Under the pieces are notes generated by a model. The model saw nothing but the letters and a program-made list of their open reading frames with translations. It was not told the origin of the DNA and did not search any database. The translations under genes and the position numbers were made by a program. A DNA stretch of 64,000 bases from Amyelois transitella (taxonomy: Eukaryota; Arthropoda; Insecta; Lepidoptera; Pyralidae): the NCBI RefSeq assembly GCF_032362555.1, contig NC_083523.1:2393501-2457500 (forward strand), written 5' to 3'. Shown here piece by piece: positions 8,951-64,000 of the stretch (the stretch's first letter is position 1; each line of letters begins with the position of its first letter).

Positions 8951-11900
8951 TTATCTGTGCATTTGTATGTAGTGCTGATGTTTAACGAAGGCTATAGCTG
9001 CTAATTCCTTACAGAACTCTTCAAGGACTATCAGGCTTTCCACCAGTTGGTTGTGTTCACCGCTGAAAGTAAAAAAGTGAGATCAGAGACAAAATCTATT
9101 CTAAAGGTTTTTTTTTACCATGTGGAGTTTTTAAAAAGGAGAAAACCAAAAAGAGAGGTGGATTGGTAGCGTTAGAGACTATAAGAAGGAAAGGCGTAGG
9201 AGTAATCTATTTTCCTCACCAGCTCCATTCAGTTGTCCCATGGTAGGACAACTCAAAAGAACTAGCAGGATGGTCTATGAAATGGCAAATGAAACCAAGA
9301 CCCAAGTGTGAACATCTCAAATACATATTATTATTGTTTGGATAAAGAATTAGATTTCCTGGCTTTAATATTTTCAATCATTAAAAAAAGTATTTTACCT
9401 CTCGTCATAGCTGGGATCTTCACTCATCAGTTGCAACCTCGTATTCTCTATCACCTTCTTGTAATTCCTTATTCTAGGTATCTCCATAGTCAACCTCCTT
9501 GCCAATTCTTGTAGCGTCTTGAACAAAGTCTGGGTTTTTTTCGCAGTTGGCAACGTCGGGTTCAACAAGTACTCGTGCAGATTCGGATGCGGCAAGAGTG
9601 CCAACTTTGAGATAATAGACGTCAAATGCAAATTAACCTCGTAAGGTTGGCATGGCATATTCGCGAGTAATTTGAACAGCATTTTGAAGAACGGACCCTC
9701 GTCGAATTCTTCATCTGGAGTAGAATTGGGCGCAGTGTCTTTTCTGAGAATCAATTTCTGTGTAAATTTACTTTCTGTACAATGTTCAGTGTCGTGACTA
9801 GATTCCCTTTTCATAAGCATTTTTTGCGTTAAAGTATTATCGTGGTAGTGATCAATATCATCGCTAAGTTTCACATGTTCCTGTGAAAATTGATTATCTG
9901 TGCTGGTGTAGTGTTGTTCCGTATTGATGCTAGTGCTGGGGCAATCGGTTTTTGCCGATTCGAACGCCTCGTCTAGGTGTATGTCTGCCTCCGGGCGGCT
10001 ATCGTAGCTGTGGGTTGAGCTTGCCGTGTTGTCGGTCCAGTGTTCGCTTGGCCAGTTGAATGTGGAAGTTGTATCCAACCAGAACTGTAATAAAAATTTA
10101 TCGGTCTTCAATTTTATGCCTCACATTATTGGAAACTAGTTTAAAGTAAGAGTAAGAAATAAGAGTTTAATAAATACTTAACCAATGTGGCTTAATAAGA
10201 AACGTGAAGAACAGCTTACAGCGTGTAACTATGTAGCACGATTCTTTAATGAAGTATAAAAGAAAAGATGTCGACTGACTGTTTGACAAATCAACGCCAG
10301 TTCAAGCCGCTTTGTCTAGAGATTTCAAATGTGACATATTATGGGTTCCTCCTTCTAAGAATATGTACTAAAAGAGGATTACCTTTAATTTCCGCGTTAG
10401 TATTCGCTCCACTATTTTATTTAGGCGACAAATTTGTTTCAAGTCAAAACTACGAAAGGAACTAACTGAAATTGAAACATAAGATACACACGGACCTAGT
10501 ACACCTGTCCAGAGAGTTGTGGACGTAACCGGACTAACGCCAGAAGAATTGAGGTTCCCCTGCAAAGGTTGCGGAGGTCAACCGGTTCGTGTAAAAACCT
10601 GACATATCCCATCAAAAATCCATGGTCGAAGGCATACCCCGGGCTCCTCTCCAGAATGGTGAGGACGCAACCGGAACTAACGTCAGGAGGAAGAAGTATG
10701 TATGCTTATTTTATGTATACTTTTCCTCCATTTTTATAATTATGTATGTACGAATATGCTTTTCATAAATTATTTTAATCCGATAGCGTCGCGTGATTGT
10801 TTGTTGTAACTTTTGGCGTACAGATGTCGCCACAAATACATACACATAATCACGTCTATATCCCTCGCGGGGCAGACAGAACTAACAGTCTTCAAGAACA
10901 AGACTGACGGGCCACATTCAAGTGAATTGAGATTAAAATAATGACAGGTAGTATGCTCAACCATTGTCTAAAAGAAAAAATCCCAAATTTATAAACCTAT
11001 CCCTTAGTCGCTATTTACTACATTTGGATATTTCCTACATACCTATTTGTGTGTTACATACATATATACATATATAAGGTACCTGGTAATGCCTATGCGC
11101 GTCGTGTATGTAGTGTTCGTAGTCCGACCCCACGGGGTCCGACAAAATGGCGCGCGGCAGCAGGAGCAGGAAACTGGGACAATGAAACGAACAGCACATG
11201 TATTTGAAACGTTTAATTGTATCATTGATATGTTGTATACTTATGTACATTTATCCTGGAATTTGACCAGGTTTTGTTGACCACGATCCAGCTGTGAGAT
11301 AATAGACATGTGTAAAAAAAGTACTGAATGTGTGATTTGACCAAAAAGCATTTTTTTTATATGAGTACGTATACGACCTAATTTTGTCTGATGGCGTTTG
11401 AGGTCATACGTACTCTTTTGCCTTTTTTTACTACTTTTTTTTGTAGGAATTCCAAGATTTACATTTTTGTAAGTTATATACATTTTGCTATATATGTATT
11501 TTGGTACATTATTACAAATTGGTATAGAACCCAATACCAAATGTTATAATACAGTACTGAGTACAGCCCTATCGACAAACTATTGCAAATTTATTATGTT
11601 CAGAATTTACGCCCAGGTAATAAACTAAGGGTGACTGCCGTCTCACCTCTTGAGATCCTATTCTGTGTTAACAGATTTATCTGACGCAAGTTGGATCGCG
11701 GTCACATGTATACATGACACATTGTAAAAACATTCACGTGGGAAGCTATAGACATTGGGGCAACAAAAAATAAACCAACAGCAATACTTCACTAAATCAA
11801 ATGCATCAGTGTTGCAAAAAAAAACATTCCTCGGTTGAACCGTTAAAAATAAATTTAATTCAACACGTTTATATGTTTCCACGCAAATGGTATAAAATCA

Positions 11901-17900: not shown

Positions 17901-20900
17901 TTCATGAGTGTATCACAGTAGTCGAGCCACGAGAAGAAACTGGTGAGTTCCCGGTAACCGTGGAACTTGTTAAGGTGTTTGTCCCCGAAATCGTGCGCCA
18001 CATACCTACAATAGGATATAATTTTATTAGAAAAACAATATTAAGCTTCTTACTTTCTTACTATACCAATACCATCTATGGTTCTAACAACCTTCAGATT
18101 GTACAAACCAAAACCTGTTACTATTCAAATCTCAATGTGGCCTTTCAGTATTTTCAAGAGTGTTAGCTCTGTCTACCGCGTAATTACGAGTATATGTAAT
18201 AATATTATGTTTCTTTGTATTTGGAGCCTGGTTACGACCAACTTGGAGAACCACGATCCAAGAGTAGGAGATTTTTTCTTCCTACTGGCTTTAGTTCCGA
18301 TTGCATCCTCACCTCTCTAGAGAACCCGGGGTATGCCTTTGACCATGGATCCTAGATTGAGTGAGTCAAGTCTTAACGCGAAGCGACTACCATCCTAACC
18401 CGTATTGGATCCATGGTTACACATCCAGTTGTTTGTGCAAGTTTCCTCACGATGTTTTCCCTCACCATAAGTTCGGTTAGTATTGAAAGTGTACATAACT
18501 TTGAAAGTAGTCATTGGTACATGGCCGAGTCGGATTTAAATCTGTGCCTTTATGTGCTTCACGCATTTTAACCGGGCATCTTACCGATTCGACCACTGAT
18601 GCGCATAAAACTAACGAAAAAAAAACACTATAAACTCACGCCCAAGTAATGTTAAGATGCTCTACATCAGCTGGGTCGGTGTTGGCCGGTATACTTCTGT
18701 ACTTTTCGGCCAACTTGTCCACTATAGTCTCGCAGGCAGGGCTGCAACTGGTCACCAGATTGGCTATGTCGTCTTCAGGCAGCGAGGACACAATCATGAT
18801 GCCTTCACAAGCTCGGAGTACAACTTGGTTATCCTGTGGAAGAATAACAAAAATAACTAGTAAATTTGATGCTTATTTAAAGGCAAAACCTCGTAACCTC
18901 GTTACTCTGCACATTCAGGTACTTAATTAGTTGACAGACAGACAAAAATCATAGATTTGGCTTCTGTTGGTTTTTTAAAAATTTCCCATATAAAATTTTA
19001 TGGAAATATATTTCAAGCACAAATATCCGTCAGTTACTATTTTATTATATTATGTATGTTTGGATGGATATGAATTTAGTCATTAACATACCGCACTGTT
19101 CAAGTAAGATAGCAGCAGATCAATCAACAAGAACTTATCGTTGTCCTCGTAAACTGTCTTGTGGCTTTTACATGAAGCATCATCAGAACTGCTCGAACCT
19201 TCATTACTATTTGTTCTAATGATTGACACATTCTTTAATGGGTTCGGCGGTAACTCCACTTCAAATAAAGGGTTCTTCTTTGGTGTTTGTACTTTGCTTT
19301 TAATTGGTATAAGCTTTTGAATATCTTCTGGTATACTGAGTAAACTTGTTTTGTCTTCAACAAATGGAGTAGTGAAGATGTTGGCCATTCCGGGCTCTTT
19401 GCGAACCAGTCCACAGAGTGTTAATAGGAGTTCCACTTCTTCTTTCTCTGTGGGTGATGCGGGGTTTTCGTTGCATTGGATCAACATTCTCTATTAAAAG
19501 AAAATTGTTCTGGGTAAATTTGTCAACTCAAACTAAATTACTGTTTTTAAATTTTATTATAATATTGCCTGGATTGACATGGCTTCAAACAGTTATCTTG
19601 TAATATGAAATACTTATTCAATGATTACAAGATACTTCAGTCTTTTGGAGGACTTTTGGCTCAGTCTACACGCATATATATCCCGGGTTATAGATGTAAT
19701 TAAATGTATGTAACAAAAAAAAAAACTGGTCAATCAGAATAGGTTCAATGTTCTATATTGAACTGGCTAAGAATAAAATCCAAATCTTTATCCATATAAG
19801 TTATACCTACTTGGTACATCAGAAACTCAAGCCATGTGAAAAAAGAAACTTACTTGCAGAGGTCTGTAAACATGAGCACTATTAACACATGGCTGCCTGG
19901 TCCTCCGCAGAAGTGCAGTCCCCGTTGTCAGAGCCAGAGCTCTCGCGCCCGGAGGCCTATCGGCTGCGGCTAATGCTGTTAGCGCATCCAATATGCATAT
20001 GGAACGCTGGACTATTGCTTCGAGACAGGGACCCACCGTGCCTCCATGTTGTTCCTTCTCTTCTTCCACTATCAGCTGGAATGATGAATGCATACCTATA
20101 ATCATGTCTATAGCCCTTGCAGGTTAGACAGTGCCCAGAGTCATGAAGAGACTGAAAGGACACATTCAGCTTTATGATGGAATTAAGATTAAGAAATAAT
20201 GACAGGTTGCTAGCCCATTACCCACAAGAGGAATTCCAAGTTTATTAGCCTATCCCATAGTCACACTTACAACATCCATGAGTTAAATATGAGGAGTGGT
20301 TCTATTTCAAAGTGCTGATAACCACATGGCACAATTGTGATAATGCATAAATACTCTCTCAGCATAGCATGGGTCTGATGTTAAAATGATACTTAGTAAT
20401 TTAAAATAATTTTTAAGTTTTCTGCCTGCTTCACACAAAATCCTTTTTTATATCAATCTATTAAAAAGTAAGTTGTTTTTAAGATTAAAAATTATTAATT
20501 AGAGAGGTAGAATATCCCAGTTTTATTTATTCTTGGTAGCAGACCCTAGATTTTAGGAATCAAACTTAGTATATAGATTATGTAGACCATTACAAGGAAA
20601 TCTTTTTCTGCCACCTGGCTTTGTTATTCAGACAGACAATCTGTGTGGTCATATTATTAACGCTTGGAACTTATTCTTCGGCAATATGGATACTTTTAAG
20701 ACAAGAAAACTAAAAATTTACTCAACCAGACAAATGATTTAAAATTTACCTGCAACATCTGATGTAGGTGATGAGGTATCCGTGTATCCTCAACGTGCAC
20801 CTTACTATTATCATCATAGTTTTGATAGAAATTCAAAATCATCTTCCAATGATATTCGAAGTCTTCCAGCCGTGTTGCCGGCGGAGCCAACTGGAAATTG

Positions 20901-21756: not shown

Positions 21757-24700
21757 ATGTCCGATGACGAAGTCATACGGTTCGAAATCACCGATTATGA
21801 TTTGGACAACGAGTTCAATCCCAATAGAAGCCGAAGAGCTAAGAAAGAACAGCAAATTTATGGTGTGTTTACGATATTTTTTTTAATCTCTTAACTAGAG
21901 ACTGCATAGCAGCAAGCAGACAACCGCTCTTCAATGTTTTCTTATAAACTACTCGCTTTACATTATTCTAAATCTCAACTGGTCGAAGTAAAGAGAAAAA
22001 TGCTGGGCGCAGACCTGATTCCCCGGATCGCATGGGGCTTCGGGTTCAATCAATCAAGCAGACTCTAGCTTTAAGGCTTCGATTGTGTTAACAATATCCA
22101 AAGAACTGTTACGTGTTGCAGTTGGTTGGTTGTCTTATACTACCTTAACTTACCTAAAATACTAACCTTAATAACATTTCAGGAGTATGGGCTAAGGATA
22201 GTGATGAAGATGACAATGAGGACAATATTAGACAAAGGACTCGAAAGCCCAAGGACTTCTCAGCGCCAATCGGATTTGTTGCTGGCGGAGTTCAGCAGGC
22301 AGGAAAAAAGAAGGAAGAGAAAAAAGGTAGTTTGTAATTTTATAATTACCATATATTATCTACCTATTCAGACCAAGATTCAGACTAATTAATTTCTTCT
22401 GTACCAATTGCATTCTGAATTATTGGCTGTATTTATTATATTAAGACAGTAACTGACTGTATTTTTATGTTTAATATTTTGGACAGTCTCATGTGGTACA
22501 TGTTGACTTGAATCAATGTGGATGATTTAAGAGGCAACTAAGTGAATAACCACTTGCCCATTTTGTAACCATGATCTTAGCTGATACAGAATTGATACAG
22601 ATACATATACAGAATTGATACAGAACTGATACAGAACATTTATAAATCTCTTTTTCTTTGTTAATAGTGCAGAAGATCAACATTCAAGTGGCGCTTCTTA
22701 ATTTTATTTACTACTATTTACATTTCTAGAACTGCAACCGTCTGAAGCCTCCACATCCAGACCGGCCTTAGCTGCTGACAGCTCTGATGAAGACGAGAAA
22801 CCGACCAACCCTGCGGAGAGCGAGACAGCAGGGATCCGGAGAGTGGGTCAGGGCATGAGGCCGGCAAACTTTGGAGGGAACATGGGCAATTGGGAAAAAC
22901 ATACTAAGGGTATTGGAGCCAAGTTGCTGCTACAGGTAAAGTATTTTTTTTCTTTTCTTCATTTTGGAAATCAGACTTTTTCATGAGCTTATTGCCAGTG
23001 TCAGTTTAAACAGTTCTAGTTATACATACTACTCTGTCAAGAAAGTATCGGGAATGGATTATTTATTTATGGTTCCAAATTCAAATCTTTGTTTTTTTTG
23101 TTGTTGTTAGATTGGCACAACTGTTTTCCATTTTGGCGCGGAGTTTGAGTTGCATCTGTTGTTTACATTAAATACAGTGCTATTTTTAGTTATATCATAT
23201 CTAGTGTGTATTGCTAATTTCATAATGGATAAAAACATCGAACAAAGAGTTTGTCTTAAATTTTGCATTGCCAATGGAATATCGTGTTCGGAGTCACTGA
23301 AAATGTTACAGAAGGCTTACGGTGAATCGACTTTATCAAAAACTCGTGCTTATGAGTGGTACAAAGCGTTCAAAAGCGGTCGAGATGTGATGGAAGATTT
23401 GCCTCGCTCTGGTAGGCCATCAACGTCTGCAACTGAAGTTAACATCGCAAAAGTGAAGGAAATAGTGACTGAAAATCCTCATTCAACTTTGAGAGAGATA
23501 GCCACCGAACTTTCTGTATCTCACGAGTCGATCCGTACCATTTTAACTAATAATTTGGGTATGAAACATGTTGCCGCTCGGCTAGTCCCAAAAGACCTGA
23601 ATTTTTTTCAAAAACTCAATCGCATGAGAGTCGCTGAGGACATGCTAGAACGAGTCAATTCCGACCCAACATTCATGAAACGCATTGTTACTGGTGACGA
23701 GACGTGGGTTTACGAGTTTGACATGCAAACTAGTCAACAAGCTTCGGAGTGGCGCCTTCCAACTGAACCGAAACCGAAAAAACCACGCCAAAGTCGTTCA
23801 AAAGTCAAAGTCATGTTGACTGTTTTCTTTGACTATCGCGGTGTTGTGCACTCGGAATTCTTGCCGGAAGGTCACACGGTAAATAAGGAATATTACTTGA
23901 GTGTTATGCGGCGTTTAAGAGAGCAAATCCGACGAAAAAGGCCAGATTTGTGGAAAGAAAATTCTTGGATTTTGCACCATGATAATGCACCTTCGCACAA
24001 GGCCATCATTGTGAACGAATTTTTAACCAAACACTCAACAAATACCATCGAGCAACCACCATATTCACCAGATATGGCTCCAGCCGACTTTTTTCTTTTT
24101 CCTAAACTCAAATTACCACTTCGTGGCACCCGTTTTCAATCGGTAGAAGACATAAAAGAGAATTCGCGGCGAGAACTGACCTCAATTCCGGAAACAGCGT
24201 TTAAAAAATGTTTTGATGATTGGATTATTCGTTGGCGTAAGTGTATCGTTTCTAAAGGAGCATATTTTGAAGGTGATAAAATAAATTTGGATGAATAACA
24301 AACAGTTTGTGTATTATTGATCTTTTCCTGCTACTTTCTTGACAGAGTAGTATAATAATTTATATTTTGTATTGTTTAAGTAATAGCTGTGGGTGCTTTA
24401 TTTTTCCCTTTCTCTGGATTTTTTGGGACAACATCTAAAGTCATTAATTCCGATGTTATAACACTCTCCAACAGTCATGCTTCTCCAGGTACACTTAATA
24501 TTGAATACTCCACTCTTAAAAATTATATTAATACCCTATAGTCCATTAAACAAACACTTTGAAAAAATATTGCAGCACAAACAATAAAACGTTTGATTTC
24601 CCACCAAAAAGTACTTCAGGTTAAATTCTATCTAGTTCCTTCAATGGGACGACACTTATTAATATAATCCAAGAGACAAAGGTCAGAAAGTGTCAGCATT

Positions 24701-53672: not shown

Positions 53673-54286
53673 TTTCTTATATTATTTTTCTAATTATTTG
53701 TAGGGAGCGGAAGGGAGGTGCTATGTATGAAGCGGTCTATTATTTTCAATTACTACAGTAGAGAATTCACATCTCCACTGCATTCAATTCAAATTGGCTG
53801 GCTCGTCCTTGACTTGATAAAATCTGACACATGCAATCACATTGACATTGATATAAAAAAGTAATTTATATATGACAGTGATAAGTGTCATAAGCGTTTT
53901 ATTTATTCCAAAAACTAAAATATATATAAGGCACAAGACGCTTGATTTGAGTTCGTGTAGACGTGTGTAAAAAAAATTGGTACACCAATAACGTGCATCT
54001 ATAAAATTGGTATTTTAAAGTTCATAATTTTTTATATTATTTATATATATATACCTATTAATAAAATCATGTCAAAACTAAAAAGTTAAATTTCATTGCA
54101 GGAACCTGTGGCAGGAACGCGTTCTTATCATGGATGGGTGCGGAGCGTTGTGTTGTGTGTGTGTGTGTCATGTCAAGGCATTTAAATAGGTATTTTAGTT
54201 TCCTTTGTTTATTTTAATATTCAGTGATTTCTTGTGTTTGGTTTTCGATAACAAATGTTGTTTTCGTATTTTATCAAAAGTTGAAT
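53673..54286. promoter_or_regulatory. Divergent intergenic region between MPC2 and the Stepping stone-like gene
   Basis: About 615 bp lie between the start codons at 53672 (minus) and 54287 (plus). The only repeat seen is a short GT run near 54150-54167 (GTTGTGTGTGTGTGTGTC); no interspersed element was recognised. An open frame upstream of 54287 begins only at a GTG and has no ATG, so it is treated as 5' UTR. Confidence 0.5.
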
Positions 54287-55960
54287 ATGGGTACTAGCAC
54301 CATGGGTAGTGATTTGCATTCAGACAAACAAGACAAACTTTTGAAGCTTCAAGCTCGGAAGAAGGAATTGGAGCAAATGCTCGCTGCCAAAAACGAGGAA
54401 CTTTACAAATTGTGCGTGCAAGAAGTTCAGTTAACTGGTATTGTACCTCCAGAAGCTCCTTTGAGCCCTGAAGTTCCGCAACGAGAAAGATTAGGCAGTG
54501 TAAAAAGTACTGAAAGATCAACTGATGGTAACGATGTTCAAGATGGTTCCGATAATTCATCAAGGCGTCTTAGACTTTGCTCAGATCGTCTTCTCGATGC
54601 TGATCAAATTTCACGCAAAAATCATTCTCATAGGCTGTCAACTCCGTCTATATCAGGTATGTCAACGAAGAGCGCTCACCCACGACACATACGTCGTCCG
54701 GAGACGAGTTGTTCTAATTTTTTTCCTTCACCACCACAAGAGAGAAACCCAGAGACATTTTCTATACATACATCTCATACATACCCTGCATTAGCTGGTC
54801 GGCAAGAGCCTGTTTTAGACATGCACAATGATCACCAAGCACCCATGTACAGGCACCATACTTTAACAACTGAGTACATGAATAAAATATATTACACCCA
54901 TGCCCCTGAGGCTCATAATGTGTCCCGGATGCGAGAAACTCACTTTAGTTCCAGCCACCCAGATATCACTACTCATTATACGCATGGAAACATTGCACCG
55001 CATCCTGTTCAAAATGGTGCCCGTAACACTCCATTACTTTACCAATATGCTTCTCATTTGAAAGCCCAAAGCCAACATTTAGGTGCATTGCATCACCATC
55101 AAATACAAGGTCAGTCTAAGAGGAGACCAGAAGGTGCTAGAAGAAATACATTACAGCGAACTCAAACATATCATTTGACATCACACAGTGATTATAACCA
55201 GCATTTGGAAAATATGGACAACTTTCGCCACAGATCTCAGCCTGATATTCAAGAGCATTGTGAACGAATGCCCCCTCCAGTAGAGAGAGTAGCAGCAGTT
55301 CCTAACTCGTTGCCTTTACGTGAACGAAACACATTGAGACAGCCTATGCACATGCAACTGAAAGTGTCCACAGATGATTACGGGCGAGAGGATCACAGGA
55401 CCTATCCAGATGCGTTAAGCCCAGTCAGTCAAATTTCTGGATACTCTAATTTTGATTCTGTGAGCATGAATAAATTTTCGCCTTTGTCACAAACTGACAT
55501 GAGACTAAAAGAAAAACAGTGGTATGAGACATCACTTGACTCACCAACAAAAGCGGATATTCCATTGCTTAAGAAAAGTAATAGTTTAAAGCGAACATCA
55601 AGCATAGGTAATTCACAAGCATATGAAGTTATGATCTCATCAGGTCGTCATTCTGCCCTGCAGAGTCCTAACCAAGTGCCTCTTAGTCCTCCGGTGCTTT
55701 CTCCCAGTGCGGTGTCCCTCGAGTCACCTAAGAATTTAACTGTGATTGAACAGGGGAAGTGCATACCATACAGAGAAGAGACTAAGCCTTTCGAAATGTC
55801 TGATTTTTACAAATATTCTACTAAGTTTAGGCAAAACAATGTGCCGAAGCCAGCTGCCAATGCCGTGCCAAATGTAGCTCACGTTAACTCGATGTATAAC
55901 AAATTGCCAATGGAATTGCCACAATATCAACAAGAACACTGGCATAGCCACGGCAACTAG
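54287..55960 (+). CDS. sstn: Cytohesin-adaptor protein resembling Stepping stone / FRMD4-CCDC120 (CUPID region), intronless coding region
   Basis: The frame from ATG 54287 (context GAATATGG) to TAG 55960 encodes 557 residues. Residues about 10-45 form a charged coiled coil (LLKLQARKKELEQMLAAKNE) followed by LYKLCVQEVQLTGIVPPEAP. This resembles the cytohesin-binding CUPID segment of INAVA, FRMD4A/B and CCDC120 and of Drosophila Stepping stone, which recruits the Arf-GEF Steppke. The rest is low complexity, rich in Ser, His, Pro and Gln. It includes basic-Ser motifs (KKSNSLKRTSS) and Pro-directed sites (LSPPVLSPSAVSLESP) that suggest phosphorylation and 14-3-3-type binding; that is inference. 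No FERM domain precedes it. The whole coding region is one exon, unlike its neighbours. A poly(A) signal AATAAA lies near 56093. The family call rests on the N-terminal segment only. Confidence 0.7.
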   Translation: MGTSTMGSDLHSDKQDKLLKLQARKKELEQMLAAKNEELYKLCVQEVQLTGIVPPEAPLSPEVPQRERLGSVKSTERSTDGNDVQDGSDNSSRRLRLCSDRLLDADQISRKNHSHRLSTPSISGMSTKSAHPRHIRRPETSCSNFFPSPPQERNPETFSIHTSHTYPALAGRQEPVLDMHNDHQAPMYRHHTLTTEYMNKIYYTHAPEAHNVSRMRETHFSSSHPDITTHYTHGNIAPHPVQNGARNTPLLYQYASHLKAQSQHLGALHHHQIQGQSKRRPEGARRNTLQRTQTYHLTSHSDYNQHLENMDNFRHRSQPDIQEHCERMPPPVERVAAVPNSLPLRERNTLRQPMHMQLKVSTDDYGREDHRTYPDALSPVSQISGYSNFDSVSMNKFSPLSQTDMRLKEKQWYETSLDSPTKADIPLLKKSNSLKRTSSIGNSQAYEVMISSGRHSALQSPNQVPLSPPVLSPSAVSLESPKNLTVIEQGKCIPYREETKPFEMSDFYKYSTKFRQNNVPKPAANAVPNVAHVNSMYNKLPMELPQYQQEHWHSHGN

Positions 55961-59250: not shown

Positions 59251-59560
59251 TGCATTGATTGTATCTATTATTTTTGTTGTACTTTGATGTAGGAGAGAAA
59301 TAATGTATATTATCTATCAAATAAATTTTCTTCTCCTTTACATAATAAGAAACATTTTAATTCAATTCTTTTTTTTTATTTTCCACAAAACGAACAACTT
59401 AAACAAAAACGAATGAACGAATATTTTCAAATGTCACTGTCCTAACAGATCATAAAATGAGAAACATTTTGAATTAAATTAATAGGTAAGTATTATTTTA
59501 TTTGCCACAAAAGGAACAACCTTAAATTTAAAAAAAATAAGCATTAGAAAGAGTAGGTAG

Positions 59561-62166
59561 TTAGTGCTTGGGATGTTTTCGTAATTTTAACATTAGCTCG
59601 TGGAGCGACCGTTTTCCCGGATTGAAGCCTCCGTTCAGGTAATCGTTGTCGCCGCCTGAAAAGAATATTGTTGTTAGCGTTTCCTTCCTTGCCTAAATCG
59701 CCTTTTACGACATCCGCGGGAAAGAAATAAAGTGGTCCTTTTCTAAAAGTGTACGGAGCCATACGCACAACAGTAGGTACCTACATAGGTAATACTAACT
59801 ATTGCCCGCCACTTTCTTCACTGACAATTAAATACAAAAAAGCTGATCCCCTGTTTTGCCCCCAAAGGAATTGGTGGAGAAGTGTATACCGGTTTTTAAG
59901 TTGGAACAAATCTGAGAAAACCGCATTAAAATCAGATCAATAAAAAGAAGATTTCTCTTACCAGCACCCTCGAGTTGTCCATTGATGCAGCCGTCGTCCC
60001 ACATATTGACACACCGCTTGCCCGGGTTGAAACCTCCGTTCAGGTAATTGTCATCACCACCTTGTAACAAATAAATACGGTCGAATTGAGAACCTCCTTT
60101 TTTTAAGTTGGTTAAAAAAGGTTATAATCTATGGGTATATTTTTTTCTTTCGGACATGTTTTAAGGCGATTTGCTTGTATTATAAATATTTTTAGATACA
60201 TATATCGCTTGTGATGTGGGAAACAAGCTCATATTCGGCAGTTCGCCCTCGTAGAAATCTTTAATAAGTAGGTACCTTATACTAGTAGTTACTTTCAGGA
60301 AAAAAAATTGTAACGCTGTCATAGCCTTTTCAGCAGACTGTTGGTATGTCTACCCCGTAAGCGATATAGACATATTTACATCTATCTATGTATGTTCGAG
60401 GTCGGATAGACAATAAACTTTACTCATACATAAAATTTCATCACAATCGGTGCCGCATTTTATTAGACATGAAAGCGTAAGATTTTACTTCTTGGAAAAT
60501 ATTTAATTAATTTCGAAACAAAAAATTAAAAAAACATTCTGACCAGCTCCATTGAGTTGTCCGTTAATACAGCCTTCGTCCCACATGTTGACGCACCGCT
60601 TTCCCGGGTTGAAACCTCCGTTCAGGTAATTGTCATCGCCACCTGTAGATAATTATTAAAAAAATACTTCCATGATTTAATCATCCTTACTTAATATACA
60701 AATGCGTTTATTTACCGAACTATTTACATACTCACGCTTTATATTTGACCAAATTTTATAAAATTTCATACAAATAAATAAAATACAGTACCCACTGAAA
60801 AGGACAAATGGTACCTACGTTTCGTAATTGCCGAAGCCTTTAACACCCAGCATCGTGTCCAAGTAATTACGAAATATGGTAAACAGTTCTCATAAGTAAT
60901 TTATCTATCTGTCTTTAATTTAATATTTGTATTTTAGCTCATTAAAATTTATTTTTTAAGACAAAAGATTGTAGACTGAAATATTTGTAACCTAAATTCA
61001 TGTTGAAGTTACTTTAATGAAAAATAAAAATTGATTTGTGGTTGACCGTCATATCCACCCACTGCATTAAATGATTTTTTTTTATTAGTTAACATATTAT
61101 ATTTACGTGTGTAATTATTTTCTATATGAAAATAATTTTGTGTATTTTATAGTAAGTATATTTTGTGTATTAAGTTAAAAGTTTTTTAATGATTACCAAA
61201 TTAGTGTCCACCAAATAATTTAATTGACTAACTTACCAGCTCCGTTGAGCTGGCCGTTGATGCAACCTTCATCCCACATGTTGACGCACCGCTTGCCCGG
61301 GTTGAAACCTCCATTTAGGTAATTATCATCACCACCTACAGAATCAATCAATCAATCATCATTAATAATAAATTCTTGGATAAGTACTGACTAATGAAAA
61401 CATACAGCCAAAAATACCGGGTAGGTAGATAAGGTTAAATTGGTCATATTATGAGTATTCTTCTTCGATTACTTGTTTTTAGAGAGAATTTTCCGAATTT
61501 CCTGTGGAATACGGACAAACGTCAACGCTGCTCCTCGATTTTAAACTAGCCAGTAGGAAAATTTTAAAAAAGAATCCTTATAAAATAATAAATACAAAAA
61601 TAAATAATCTGTGACTAGAAAATGGCGGAGAATATGAAAAGTTAAACACAAAAAGTGATTAAACATTGCCAGTGTTTCATATCTTTTATTATAACTAGAT
61701 ATGTGCTATTTCTTATAACTTTGTAAATTTTTGTGCAATAAAGATATTACAAACAGACAAAATTTAATATAACTTACCAGCGCCATTAAGTTGACCGTTG
61801 ATGCATCCTTCATCCCACATGTTAACACATCTCCCTGTGACATAATCATCATCACTACGATATACCTTTATAGGGTTAGTAAAAAACAAAGTCGCCCTTC
61901 GCTTTTGATGCAATAATTATTAATTAGGCAATATATACTTGATAGAAAACATTCTTCAAGGGAAATCGTGAAAAGGAAGCATTATTTTTTTTTTATGACA
62001 AACACTCAACGGACTTAAGAAAATAATTATCATTTTCTGAAATTGATTGAAAGAAAATTTATGACTTCATCTAAATAAAAACTCACTCACCATGTCCCCG
62101 GGATGATCCCAAGGATTTAGAATAAACGATGCTTATCAGGCCACAGAAAAAGATAAAATGTTTCAT
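59561..62166 (-). CDS. Secreted multi-repeat precursor of disulfide-loop peptides, 6 exons, unrecognised family
   Basis: Exons in transcription order: 62166-62087, 61854-61778, 61335-61237, 60642-60544, 60060-59962 and 59655-59561. They sum to 549 nt, 182 codons plus stop, in phase. Exon 1 encodes a signal peptide (MKHFIFFCGLISIVYS). Its donor is the second of two overlapping GTGAGT sites (62086), because only that one keeps the frame. Exons 3-5 are 99 nt each, bounded by phase-1 introns, and encode near-identical modules GGDDNYLNGGFNPGKR + CVNMWDEGCINGQLNGA. Exon 2 encodes an acidic variant (GDDDDYVTGR) before the same Cys loop. Exon 6 ends with GKRSLHELMLKLRKHPKH. Each Gly-Lys-Arg is a standard dibasic cleavage and amidation site. 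Processing would release four peptides whose N-terminal Cys pair encloses seven residues (VNMWDEG); three would end in Pro-amide. A TATA box lies upstream. A role as hormone, defence peptide or toxin is undecided. Confidence 0.85.
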
Positions 62167-62992: not shown

Positions 62993-63893
62993 CTAATTCT
63001 TCTTCACTTTCTTATCAACCTTTTTCCTAGAACAGCATAATTTCACTATAATCTTCTTCAGAACGTACAAAACTGCCAATACTAAAGCGAGGAGGTCTAA
63101 GTATAGCTTCTGATAAAGGGGCACGTCCAGGGCTGGAGAGCGGAGGTGCGGCGCACCTCGTGTCTTCACCACGTGCTCTACCCAGTGCACCAGCTCCTTC
63201 CTAGGGTGCACCGGCCTGTCGTGGTAGATTAACGATAGCTCCTTCGCCGTCTCCGTGAACCTGCAAAGCATCAGAGATATTGATGTCAACGAACGATCTC
63301 TGTGTTTAATATAAAATCATTAGAATACTTACAATGATTATATTTTTATGAGTTAAAATGTATATAATATAATTAACTAACGCCACCCCAGACTGATCCC
63401 CGATCAAATGCACCTACTAGCGCATTCTGATATAAGTATCCTTAAGTTTTGCGCTAGGCTAGGTTTTGCTAGTTAGATTAAAAAAATCTTTTTTTTTTTC
63501 AAAAAGTTTAAGCTTATTCCAATAGCAGTCCACAGCTGTAAGTGCAATGAACTGATGCTTTCAGAAAAGTATAAGAGACTAGAAGGTAAAATTATAGTGA
63601 AAGTTACCTTTTATCATGTAGAAGTACATCAATGGCATCTCTTAAATGCTCCTTCATATCGTATGCCAGATCAACTCTCAAAGCAAAGCCTTTCTTAACA
63701 GCTCTATCGATGTTGTTGAATTGGTCTCCAAAAACAGGGATTCCAATGATAGGTTTGCCGAAATGGACAGCTTCGGTGGTAGATAAGAGCCCGCCATGAG
63801 TGATGAAAATAATGCAGTTGGGATGGGCTGCAAAATATTTGTATGTAAGTAAATTGAATGATCCATTTGTTAAAATTTCTATTTCTTGATCCA
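62993..63893 (-). CDS. UDP-glycosyltransferase (UGT), last two exons; the rest lies beyond the window edge
   Basis: UGTs move a sugar from a UDP-sugar to small lipophilic compounds in the ER lumen. Exons 63893-63609 and 63260-62993 join in phase (KRFTETAKELS). The first carries the UGT signature region FITHGGLLSTTEAVHFGKPI followed by GIPVFGDQFNNIDRAVKKGF, the UDP-sugar binding site. The last has HPRKELVHWVEHVVKTRGAP and LRSPALDVPLYQKLYLDL, then a membrane helix (LLALVLAVLYVLKKIIVKLC) and a short Lys-rich tail (KKVDKKVKKN) of the ER-retention type. The exon beginning at 63893 is entered in phase 1. Sequence from 63894 to 64000 looks like intron; upstream exons with the signal peptide and acceptor-binding domain are outside. 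Which insect UGT family it belongs to cannot be told from this part. Confidence 0.92.
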
Positions 63894-64000
63894 CTGTATG
63901 ATTATAAACCTTTTGTTTACAGTCATTAGATTTGTTGCAATAAACTTAAATAAAAAAAGAATCTTCATCAGAAACAAATTGCTTAAAAAGAAGCCACGGC

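What the first reader, a model, noticed from the sequence alone, without database searches (positions are those of the whole stretch)
59561..62166. A tandem-exon precursor for an apparently undescribed disulfide-loop peptide family
Seen: signal peptide, then modules of 33 residues, each on its own 99-nt exon between phase-1 introns. Each full module has GGFNPGKR followed by CVNMWDEGC. Known: Gly-Lys-Arg is a prohormone cleavage and amidation signal. Inferred: four peptides start with a nine-residue Cys loop containing Trp, and three of them end about 30 residues later in Pro-amide. I cannot place this in any insect neuropeptide, defensin or toxin family I know.
Basis: partly seen in the sequence, partly recalled or inferred. 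Interest (0 to 1): 0.92.

Follow-up and report, generated by a model that had tools for sequence, protein, structure and literature searches.

The report
Moth calcitonin B peptide-hormone gene
This is the moth version of a known insect gut peptide-hormone gene called calcitonin B, which encodes four copies of one small ring-containing hormone; the gene is real and well conserved but its family was already described in 2014.

Summary
On the minus strand, six exons (62166 to 59561) splice at GT/AG sites into a 549-nt frame for a 182-residue precursor with a signal-like leader. Exons 3-5 differ almost only at synonymous sites. Relatives occur in many Lepidoptera, and in a flea, beetles, a mayfly, a locust and a stomatopod.

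All four Cys-loop peptides, not three, end in Pro-Gly-Lys-Arg, because each GKR lies on the next exon. The precursor would yield three copies of CVNMWDEGCINGQLNGAGGDDNYLNGGFNP-NH2 and one variant, each 30 residues.

The claim that the family is undescribed fails. It is insect calcitonin B (Veenstra 2014, PMC4237046), reported there from Lepidoptera and Coleoptera with an N-terminal disulfide, a C-terminal Pro-amide, multiple copies and the Pro-Gly-Lys-Arg-Cys site in Bombyx and Tribolium. No sequence labelled calcitonin B could be aligned, because figures and supplements were not readable; the name rests on several matching descriptions.

Open points: PMC6585902 (2019) calls the receptor not formally deorphanized, no expression data could be examined, and I found no sequence link to vertebrate calcitonin (a weak test).

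The parts
62087..62166 (-). Exon 1: ATG, signal-like leader (MKHFIFFCGLISIVYS...) and start of the propeptide; donor GTGAGT, phase 2
   Evidence: hydrophobic N-terminus read by eye, no predictor run; similar N-termini in P0001 and P0005
61778..61854 (-). Exon 2: short propeptide (DDDDYVTGR), then the N-terminal half of peptide copy 1 (CVNMWDEGCINGQLNGA)
61237..61335 (-). Exon 3 (99 nt, phase 1/1): C-terminal half of copy 1 (GGDDNYLNGGFNP-GKR) plus N-terminal half of copy 2
60544..60642 (-). Exon 4 (99 nt, phase 1/1): C-terminal half of copy 2 plus N-terminal half of copy 3; donor GTCAGA, weaker by eye than the others
59962..60060 (-). Exon 5 (99 nt, phase 1/1): C-terminal half of copy 3 plus N-terminal half of copy 4 (variant CVNMWDDGCINGQLEGA)
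59561..59655 (-). Exon 6: C-terminal half of copy 4 (GGDNDYLNGGFNP-GKR), then tail SLHELMLKLRKHPKH and stop
   Evidence: similar tails beginning SL or SV in many lepidopteran relatives (list)
59497..59502 (-). Candidate polyadenylation signal AATAAA, about 60 nt after the stop
   Evidence: motif only

Best explanation
This is a lepidopteran calcitonin B gene, the only such locus detected in this genome. It encodes a prohormone that is secreted (inferred from the leader). [quoted passage not shown] By analogy with published expression in other insects, it is probably made largely in the midgut and acts as a gut or neuroendocrine hormone through a class B GPCR of the Bombyx BNGR-B3 group. Shown here: gene structure, coding selection, relatives, and conservation of the cleavage and amidation sites. 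Inferred: actual splicing, processing, disulfide, tissue and receptor.
For: Gene structure. Purifying selection between copies. Family hits: 33 at E<=1, 68 at E<=0.01, 34 at E<=0.01; the rows used to build the two profiles are among the latter hits by construction. Of 180 pattern-selected units in 76 of 79 proteins, 175 have seven residues in the loop, 167 have Pro before the amidation Gly, and 115 are exactly 30 residues. PMC4237046 describes the same traits, naming Lepidoptera, Bombyx and Tribolium and the PGKRC site. Concordant details: two distinct Tribolium proteins with two units each (P0047, P0053) against two genes giving four peptides (PMC7058690); a locust relative (P0070); an Anoplophora precursor with Cys-lacking stretches (P0039), as PMC6585902 reports for that genus; S. 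frugiperda 'Calcitonin-B/DH30' (PMC11766081), where 30 agrees with the length found here, though its sequence was not compared. DH31 is a separate gene on contig C7. Units from Schistocerca (two), Tribolium (two), the stomatopod and the flea score above every one of 5000 anchored shuffles (6 of 6 tested).
Against: None of the names shown for the hits (some cut short) is calcitonin; they read uncharacterized, hypothetical, unnamed, 'Secreted protein' or 'Temptin'. The published alignments are in figures and supplements that I could not read, so the name rests on matching descriptions. Similarity to the one published sequence I had, a locust calcitonin-A-like peptide, is marginal once Cys and PGKR are held fixed: 88 of 5000 shuffles reach it for the window unit, and 761 to 1647 of 5000 for the other four units tried; with free shuffling 0 of 5000 do for the window unit and 0 to 37 for the others. 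The beetle MS study did not detect calcitonins 1 and 2 in nervous tissue (PMC9552230). In the passages I saw of two lepidopteran surveys, Manduca midgut (PMC11121805) and Chilo (PMC4926255), only DH31/calcitonin-like is listed. In one search the stomatopod protein P0033 is only at E 0.75, and its later scores are circular because it was a profile row.
Confidence: 0.93

Rival explanations
1. A new, undescribed peptide family.
For: No Pfam family passes its cut-off. No PDB sequence match. No paper in the library holds any of four peptide strings searched. None of the names shown for the hits is calcitonin.
Against: PMC4237046 describes the same gene from Lepidoptera and Coleoptera, down to the unusual PGKRC site in Bombyx and Tribolium.
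Confidence: 0.04
2. A secreted repeat protein that is not cleaved (structural or antimicrobial), in which GKR is only part of the repeat.
For: Highly regular tandem repeats; no peptide mass data available here.
Against: In 24 of 94 adjacent unit pairs among the relatives a spacer separates the copies (some are one or two residues long or look like gene-model artefacts). In clearer cases, for example P0070, P0038, P0069, P0071 and P0076, the spacer sequence differs while Cys...Gly-basic is kept. Pro stands before the Gly in 167 of 180 units.
Confidence: 0.03
3. A DH31 (calcitonin-like diuretic hormone) gene.
For: Shares a Pro-amide end (PMC4237046) and a length near 31 residues.
Against: DH31 is found elsewhere in this genome (contig C7, 89% identity, E 1.6e-13). 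DH31 lacks the N-terminal disulfide (PMC5627052).
Confidence: 0.005

Closest known systems
Insect calcitonin B (Veenstra 2014, PMC4237046; Coleoptera, PMC6585902; decapods, PMC4888303)
   Same: N-terminal predicted disulfide, C-terminal Pro-amide, several copies per precursor, single Lys-Arg between copies, the Pro-Gly-Lys-Arg-Cys junction, presence in Lepidoptera and Coleoptera
   Different: Nothing of substance seen. Four copies here; copy number is reported as variable (one to seven in beetles)
Arthropod calcitonin A
   Same: Same overall layout: Cys loop plus Pro-amide
   Different: One peptide per precursor; reported never found in Holometabola; marginal anchored similarity to the locust A-like peptide
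DH31, calcitonin-like diuretic hormone
   Same: Pro-amide, about 31 residues
   Different: No disulfide (PMC5627052); different gene in this genome
Vertebrate calcitonin
   Same: N-terminal disulfide and 32 residues (PMC5627052 passages); Pro-amide (recalled)
   Different: Loop of five residues in vertebrates (recalled) against seven in 175 of 180 units; no calcitonin chain found by profile in the PDB at E<=10

Membership tests
Insect calcitonin B | Two Cys at the peptide N-terminus (predicted disulfide) | tested here: met
   CVNMWDEGC in copies 1-3 and CVNMWDDGC in copy 4. The bond itself is not testable here
Insect calcitonin B | C-terminal Pro-amide (Pro-Gly-Lys-Arg) | tested here: met
   4 of 4 copies; Pro before Gly in 167 of 180 units in the family
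Insect calcitonin B | Multiple paracopies separated by a single Lys-Arg, with PGKRC reported for Bombyx and Tribolium | tested here: met
   Bombyx P0008, Tribolium P0047
Insect calcitonin B | Taxonomic range: Lepidoptera, Coleoptera, locust and other basal insects, sand flies, decapods; absent from Drosophila, mosquitoes, Hymenoptera, aphids | tested here: met
   Among the 78 proteins kept over, no named hit is a fly, mosquito, hymenopteran or aphid; Lepidoptera, beetles, flea, mayfly, locust and stomatopod are present.
Insect calcitonin B | Tribolium: two genes, four peptides | tested here: met
   Two distinct T. castaneum proteins, P0047 and P0053, two units each; statement in PMC7058690. 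That they are two loci was not checked on a genome
Insect calcitonin B | Direct alignment to a sequence labelled calcitonin B | not testable with these tools
Insect calcitonin B | Cognate class B receptor (BNGR-B3 / cluster A) present | tested here: inconclusive
   11 HRM-domain (PF02793) matches in the own genome, 6 over the cut-off; not assigned to receptor groups, as no reference sequence was at hand
Insect calcitonin B | Midgut expression | not testable with these tools
   No RNA data; literature only
DH31 | DH31 peptide sequence | tested here: not met
   DH31 maps to contig C7, not to this locus
Vertebrate calcitonin by descent | Detectable sequence homology | tested here: inconclusive
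   The profile search of PDB sequences gave one unrelated hit at E 1.9 and no calcitonin; a weak test for such short peptides, and that the PDB holds calcitonin chains is recalled

The most novel reading that the evidence does not exclude
Arthropod 'calcitonin B' may not be a calcitonin by descent. It would be a protostome hormone that converged on the Cys-loop plus Pro-amide layout, with a seven-residue loop, and that acts on the orphan, protostome-only cluster A receptor (BNGR-B3, reported as highly expressed in Bombyx corpora cardiaca-corpora allata). It would then be a candidate gut-to-gland signal controlling juvenile hormone.
Probability: 0.2. Interest if true: 0.5.

Novelty: already known. 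Interest (0 to 1): 0.2.

Why it matters
The gene gives a clean, complete lepidopteran calcitonin B precursor with exact peptide sequences, while none of the database names I saw for its relatives says calcitonin. [quoted passage not shown] The peptides defined here could be tested on BNGR-B3, whose ligand was unknown in 2008 (PMC2516173). The junction Pro-Gly-Lys-Arg-Cys is also a puzzle for convertase specificity, already noted in 2014.

Tried and rejected
Pfam gave three families below cut-off; the best, an orthopoxvirus F6 model, scored 21.5 bits against a cut-off of 27 and I take it as chance. PDB by sequence gave nothing, and by mature-peptide profile one unrelated weak hit. A literature search for four peptide strings found 0 papers. 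One search was badly framed: 'calcitonin b' matched inside 'procalcitonin b...', only 30 of 773 papers were listed, and it shows nothing about the other strings. A search for four gene accession names found 0 papers. One search listed 15 of 6,960 papers, none relevant. In the passages seen, M. rosenbergii (PMC4449106) reports calcitonin-like diuretic hormone rather than calcitonin B; Phauda (PMC9198061) does not contain the word calcitonin. Sorting the 11 HRM matches into receptor groups was not pursued, because no reference sequence was at hand. A search for diverged second copies in the own genome with P0070 and P0002 did not complete.

Full report
What is there. The minus strand of the window carries a six-exon gene from 62166 down to 59561. 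All five introns are GT..AG (232, 442, 594, 483 and 306 nt) and the spliced frame is 549 nt, 182 residues, with no internal stop. Exon 1 gives a hydrophobic leader (read by eye; no signal-peptide predictor was run). Exons 3, 4 and 5 are each 99 nt in phase 1/1. The first intron is best read in phase 2, which restores an acidic stretch (DDDDY) like that of the other modules. That choice is mine; a downstream AG in exon 2 that would skip the stretch in phase 1 also exists (sequence). An AATAAA lies about 60 nt beyond the stop.

It is coding and under selection. Between exons 3 and 4, 12 codons differ and all 12 changes are synonymous. Over the three pairs of exons 3-5, dN is 0 to 0.04 and dS 0.59 to 1.26. 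The own-genome search with one module found four places at E<=0.001, all within this gene (five candidates scored).

Peptides. Each of exons 3 to 5 carries the C-terminal half of one peptide and the N-terminal half of the next. Spliced, the precursor holds four complete units: three of CVNMWDEGCINGQLNGAGGDDNYLNGGFNP-GKR and one CVNMWDDGCINGQLEGAGGDNDYLNGGFNP-GKR, followed by a 15-residue tail. Copy 1 is preceded by Gly-Arg, the other three by Lys-Arg.

Relatives. A single-sequence search gave 33 proteins at E<=1, and two profile searches gave 68 and 34 at E<=0.01. The profiles were built from 9 of the 33 hits plus the window protein and from 12 retrieved proteins, and those rows match by construction. 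One search scored only the 7988 candidates sharing most words. In all, 78 distinct proteins were kept: many Lepidoptera, a flea (P0026), beetles (e.g. P0029, P0030, P0047, P0053), a mayfly (P0068, E 2.3e-4), a locust (P0070, E 7.9e-35) and a stomatopod (P0033, E 0.75 before it became a profile row). In the 78 plus the window protein, a pattern search found 180 units in 76 of 79 proteins. Of the 180, 175 have seven residues between the cysteines and 167 have Pro before the Gly; 115 units are 30 residues long. The pattern itself demands two Cys and a Gly-basic end, and some units are spurious (one in P0015 begins in the leader). In 24 of 94 adjacent pairs a spacer lies between units; some are one or two residues long or look like gene-model artefacts. 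In clear cases such as P0070 and P0038 the spacer differs and the unit is kept, which marks Cys to Gly-basic as the functional unit. Units from Schistocerca (two), Tribolium (two), the stomatopod and the flea each scored above all 5000 shuffles with Cys and the last Pro held fixed.

Identification. Veenstra 2014 (PMC4237046; I read the section on calcitonin whole and further passages) reports a calcitonin gene distinct from DH31. It has two peptide classes; class B has an N-terminal predicted disulfide, a C-terminal Pro-amide and several copies. The gene is present in Lepidoptera and Coleoptera, with only the B transcript in Holometabola. The paper notes that in Tribolium and Bombyx cleavage appears to occur at Pro-Gly-Lys-Arg-Cys. 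The gene here has these sequence traits. Further matches: two Tribolium genes giving four peptides (PMC7058690 passages; P0047 and P0053); Anoplophora copies lacking the Cys bridge (PMC6585902 passages; Cys-lacking stretches in P0039); a decapod class B form with two bridges (PMC4888303 passages), compatible with the four Cys of stomatopod P0033; and 'Calcitonin-B/DH30' in Spodoptera frugiperda (PMC11766081 passages), the number agreeing with the 30-residue peptide, though that sequence was not compared. DH31 itself lies on another contig of this genome.

Weak points. None of the names shown for hits or 38 is calcitonin. The published alignments were not readable. The only sequence from a calcitonin paper that I could compare directly was the locust A-like peptide. 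With Cys and PGKR held fixed, 88 of 5000 shuffles match its score against the window unit, and 761 to 1647 of 5000 for the other four units tried, so class A similarity is marginal. A profile of 16 peptides (15 chosen by hand from a non-redundant set of 64 of 133, plus the locust A-like peptide) finds no calcitonin in the PDB at E<=10. Homology to vertebrate calcitonin is therefore not shown here, though the test is weak. Calcitonins 1 and 2 were not detected by mass spectrometry in beetle nervous tissue (PMC9552230 passages), and in the passages I saw of two lepidopteran surveys only DH31/calcitonin-like is listed (PMC11121805; PMC4926255). A cockroach study does list calcitonin B, as a partial precursor (PMC12604039 passages).

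Mechanism. Most likely the precursor enters the secretory route, is cut at Lys-Arg, trimmed and amidated, and the peptides act as hormones. Reported expression of calcitonin B is in insect midgut (PMC4237046), and in gut plus Malpighian tubules in a weevil (PMC7058690). Proposed receptors belong to the BNGR-B3 / cluster A group, reported only from species with a calcitonin gene. Cluster A is described as apparently protostome-only and as the most divergent of the groups compared (PMC3961327 passages). BNGR-B3 was among six receptors highly expressed in Bombyx corpora cardiaca-corpora allata, with no known ligand in 2008 (PMC2516173 passages). This genome has 11 hormone-receptor-domain matches, 6 over the cut-off, which I could not sort into receptor groups.

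Verdict. Interest is low as a discovery and moderate as a defined ligand for a receptor group that PMC6585902 (2019) still called not formally deorphanized.

Noticed in passing
window 23111-24295 (+): 395-residue open frame with mariner/Mos1-like transposase domains (PF01359, PF17906).
   Followed up: no
window 62996-63945 (-): UDP-glycosyltransferase exon (PF00201, 63607-63945) just upstream of the peptide gene, with a possible C-terminal exon at 62996-63316 (my reading, not searched); the gene probably runs past the window end.
   Followed up: no
window 54218-55957 (+): 580-residue open frame with a CUPID domain (PF11819), the nearest frame of 90 or more residues on the low-coordinate side of the gene.
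   Followed up: no
window 9398-10120 (-) and 19086-19490 (-): DUF5917 and RAI16-like domains on the same strand, perhaps exons of one gene.
   Followed up: no
window 60538-60543 (-): The exon 4 donor is GTCAGA, weaker by eye than the other donors; with 99-nt symmetrical exons, skipping would drop one peptide copy in frame. Bombyx isoforms X1 and X2 (P0008, P0015) differ by one Cys-half.
   Followed up: partly
P0008, P0015, P0023: UniRef calls several of these precursors 'Temptin', probably a transferred misannotation.
   Followed up: no
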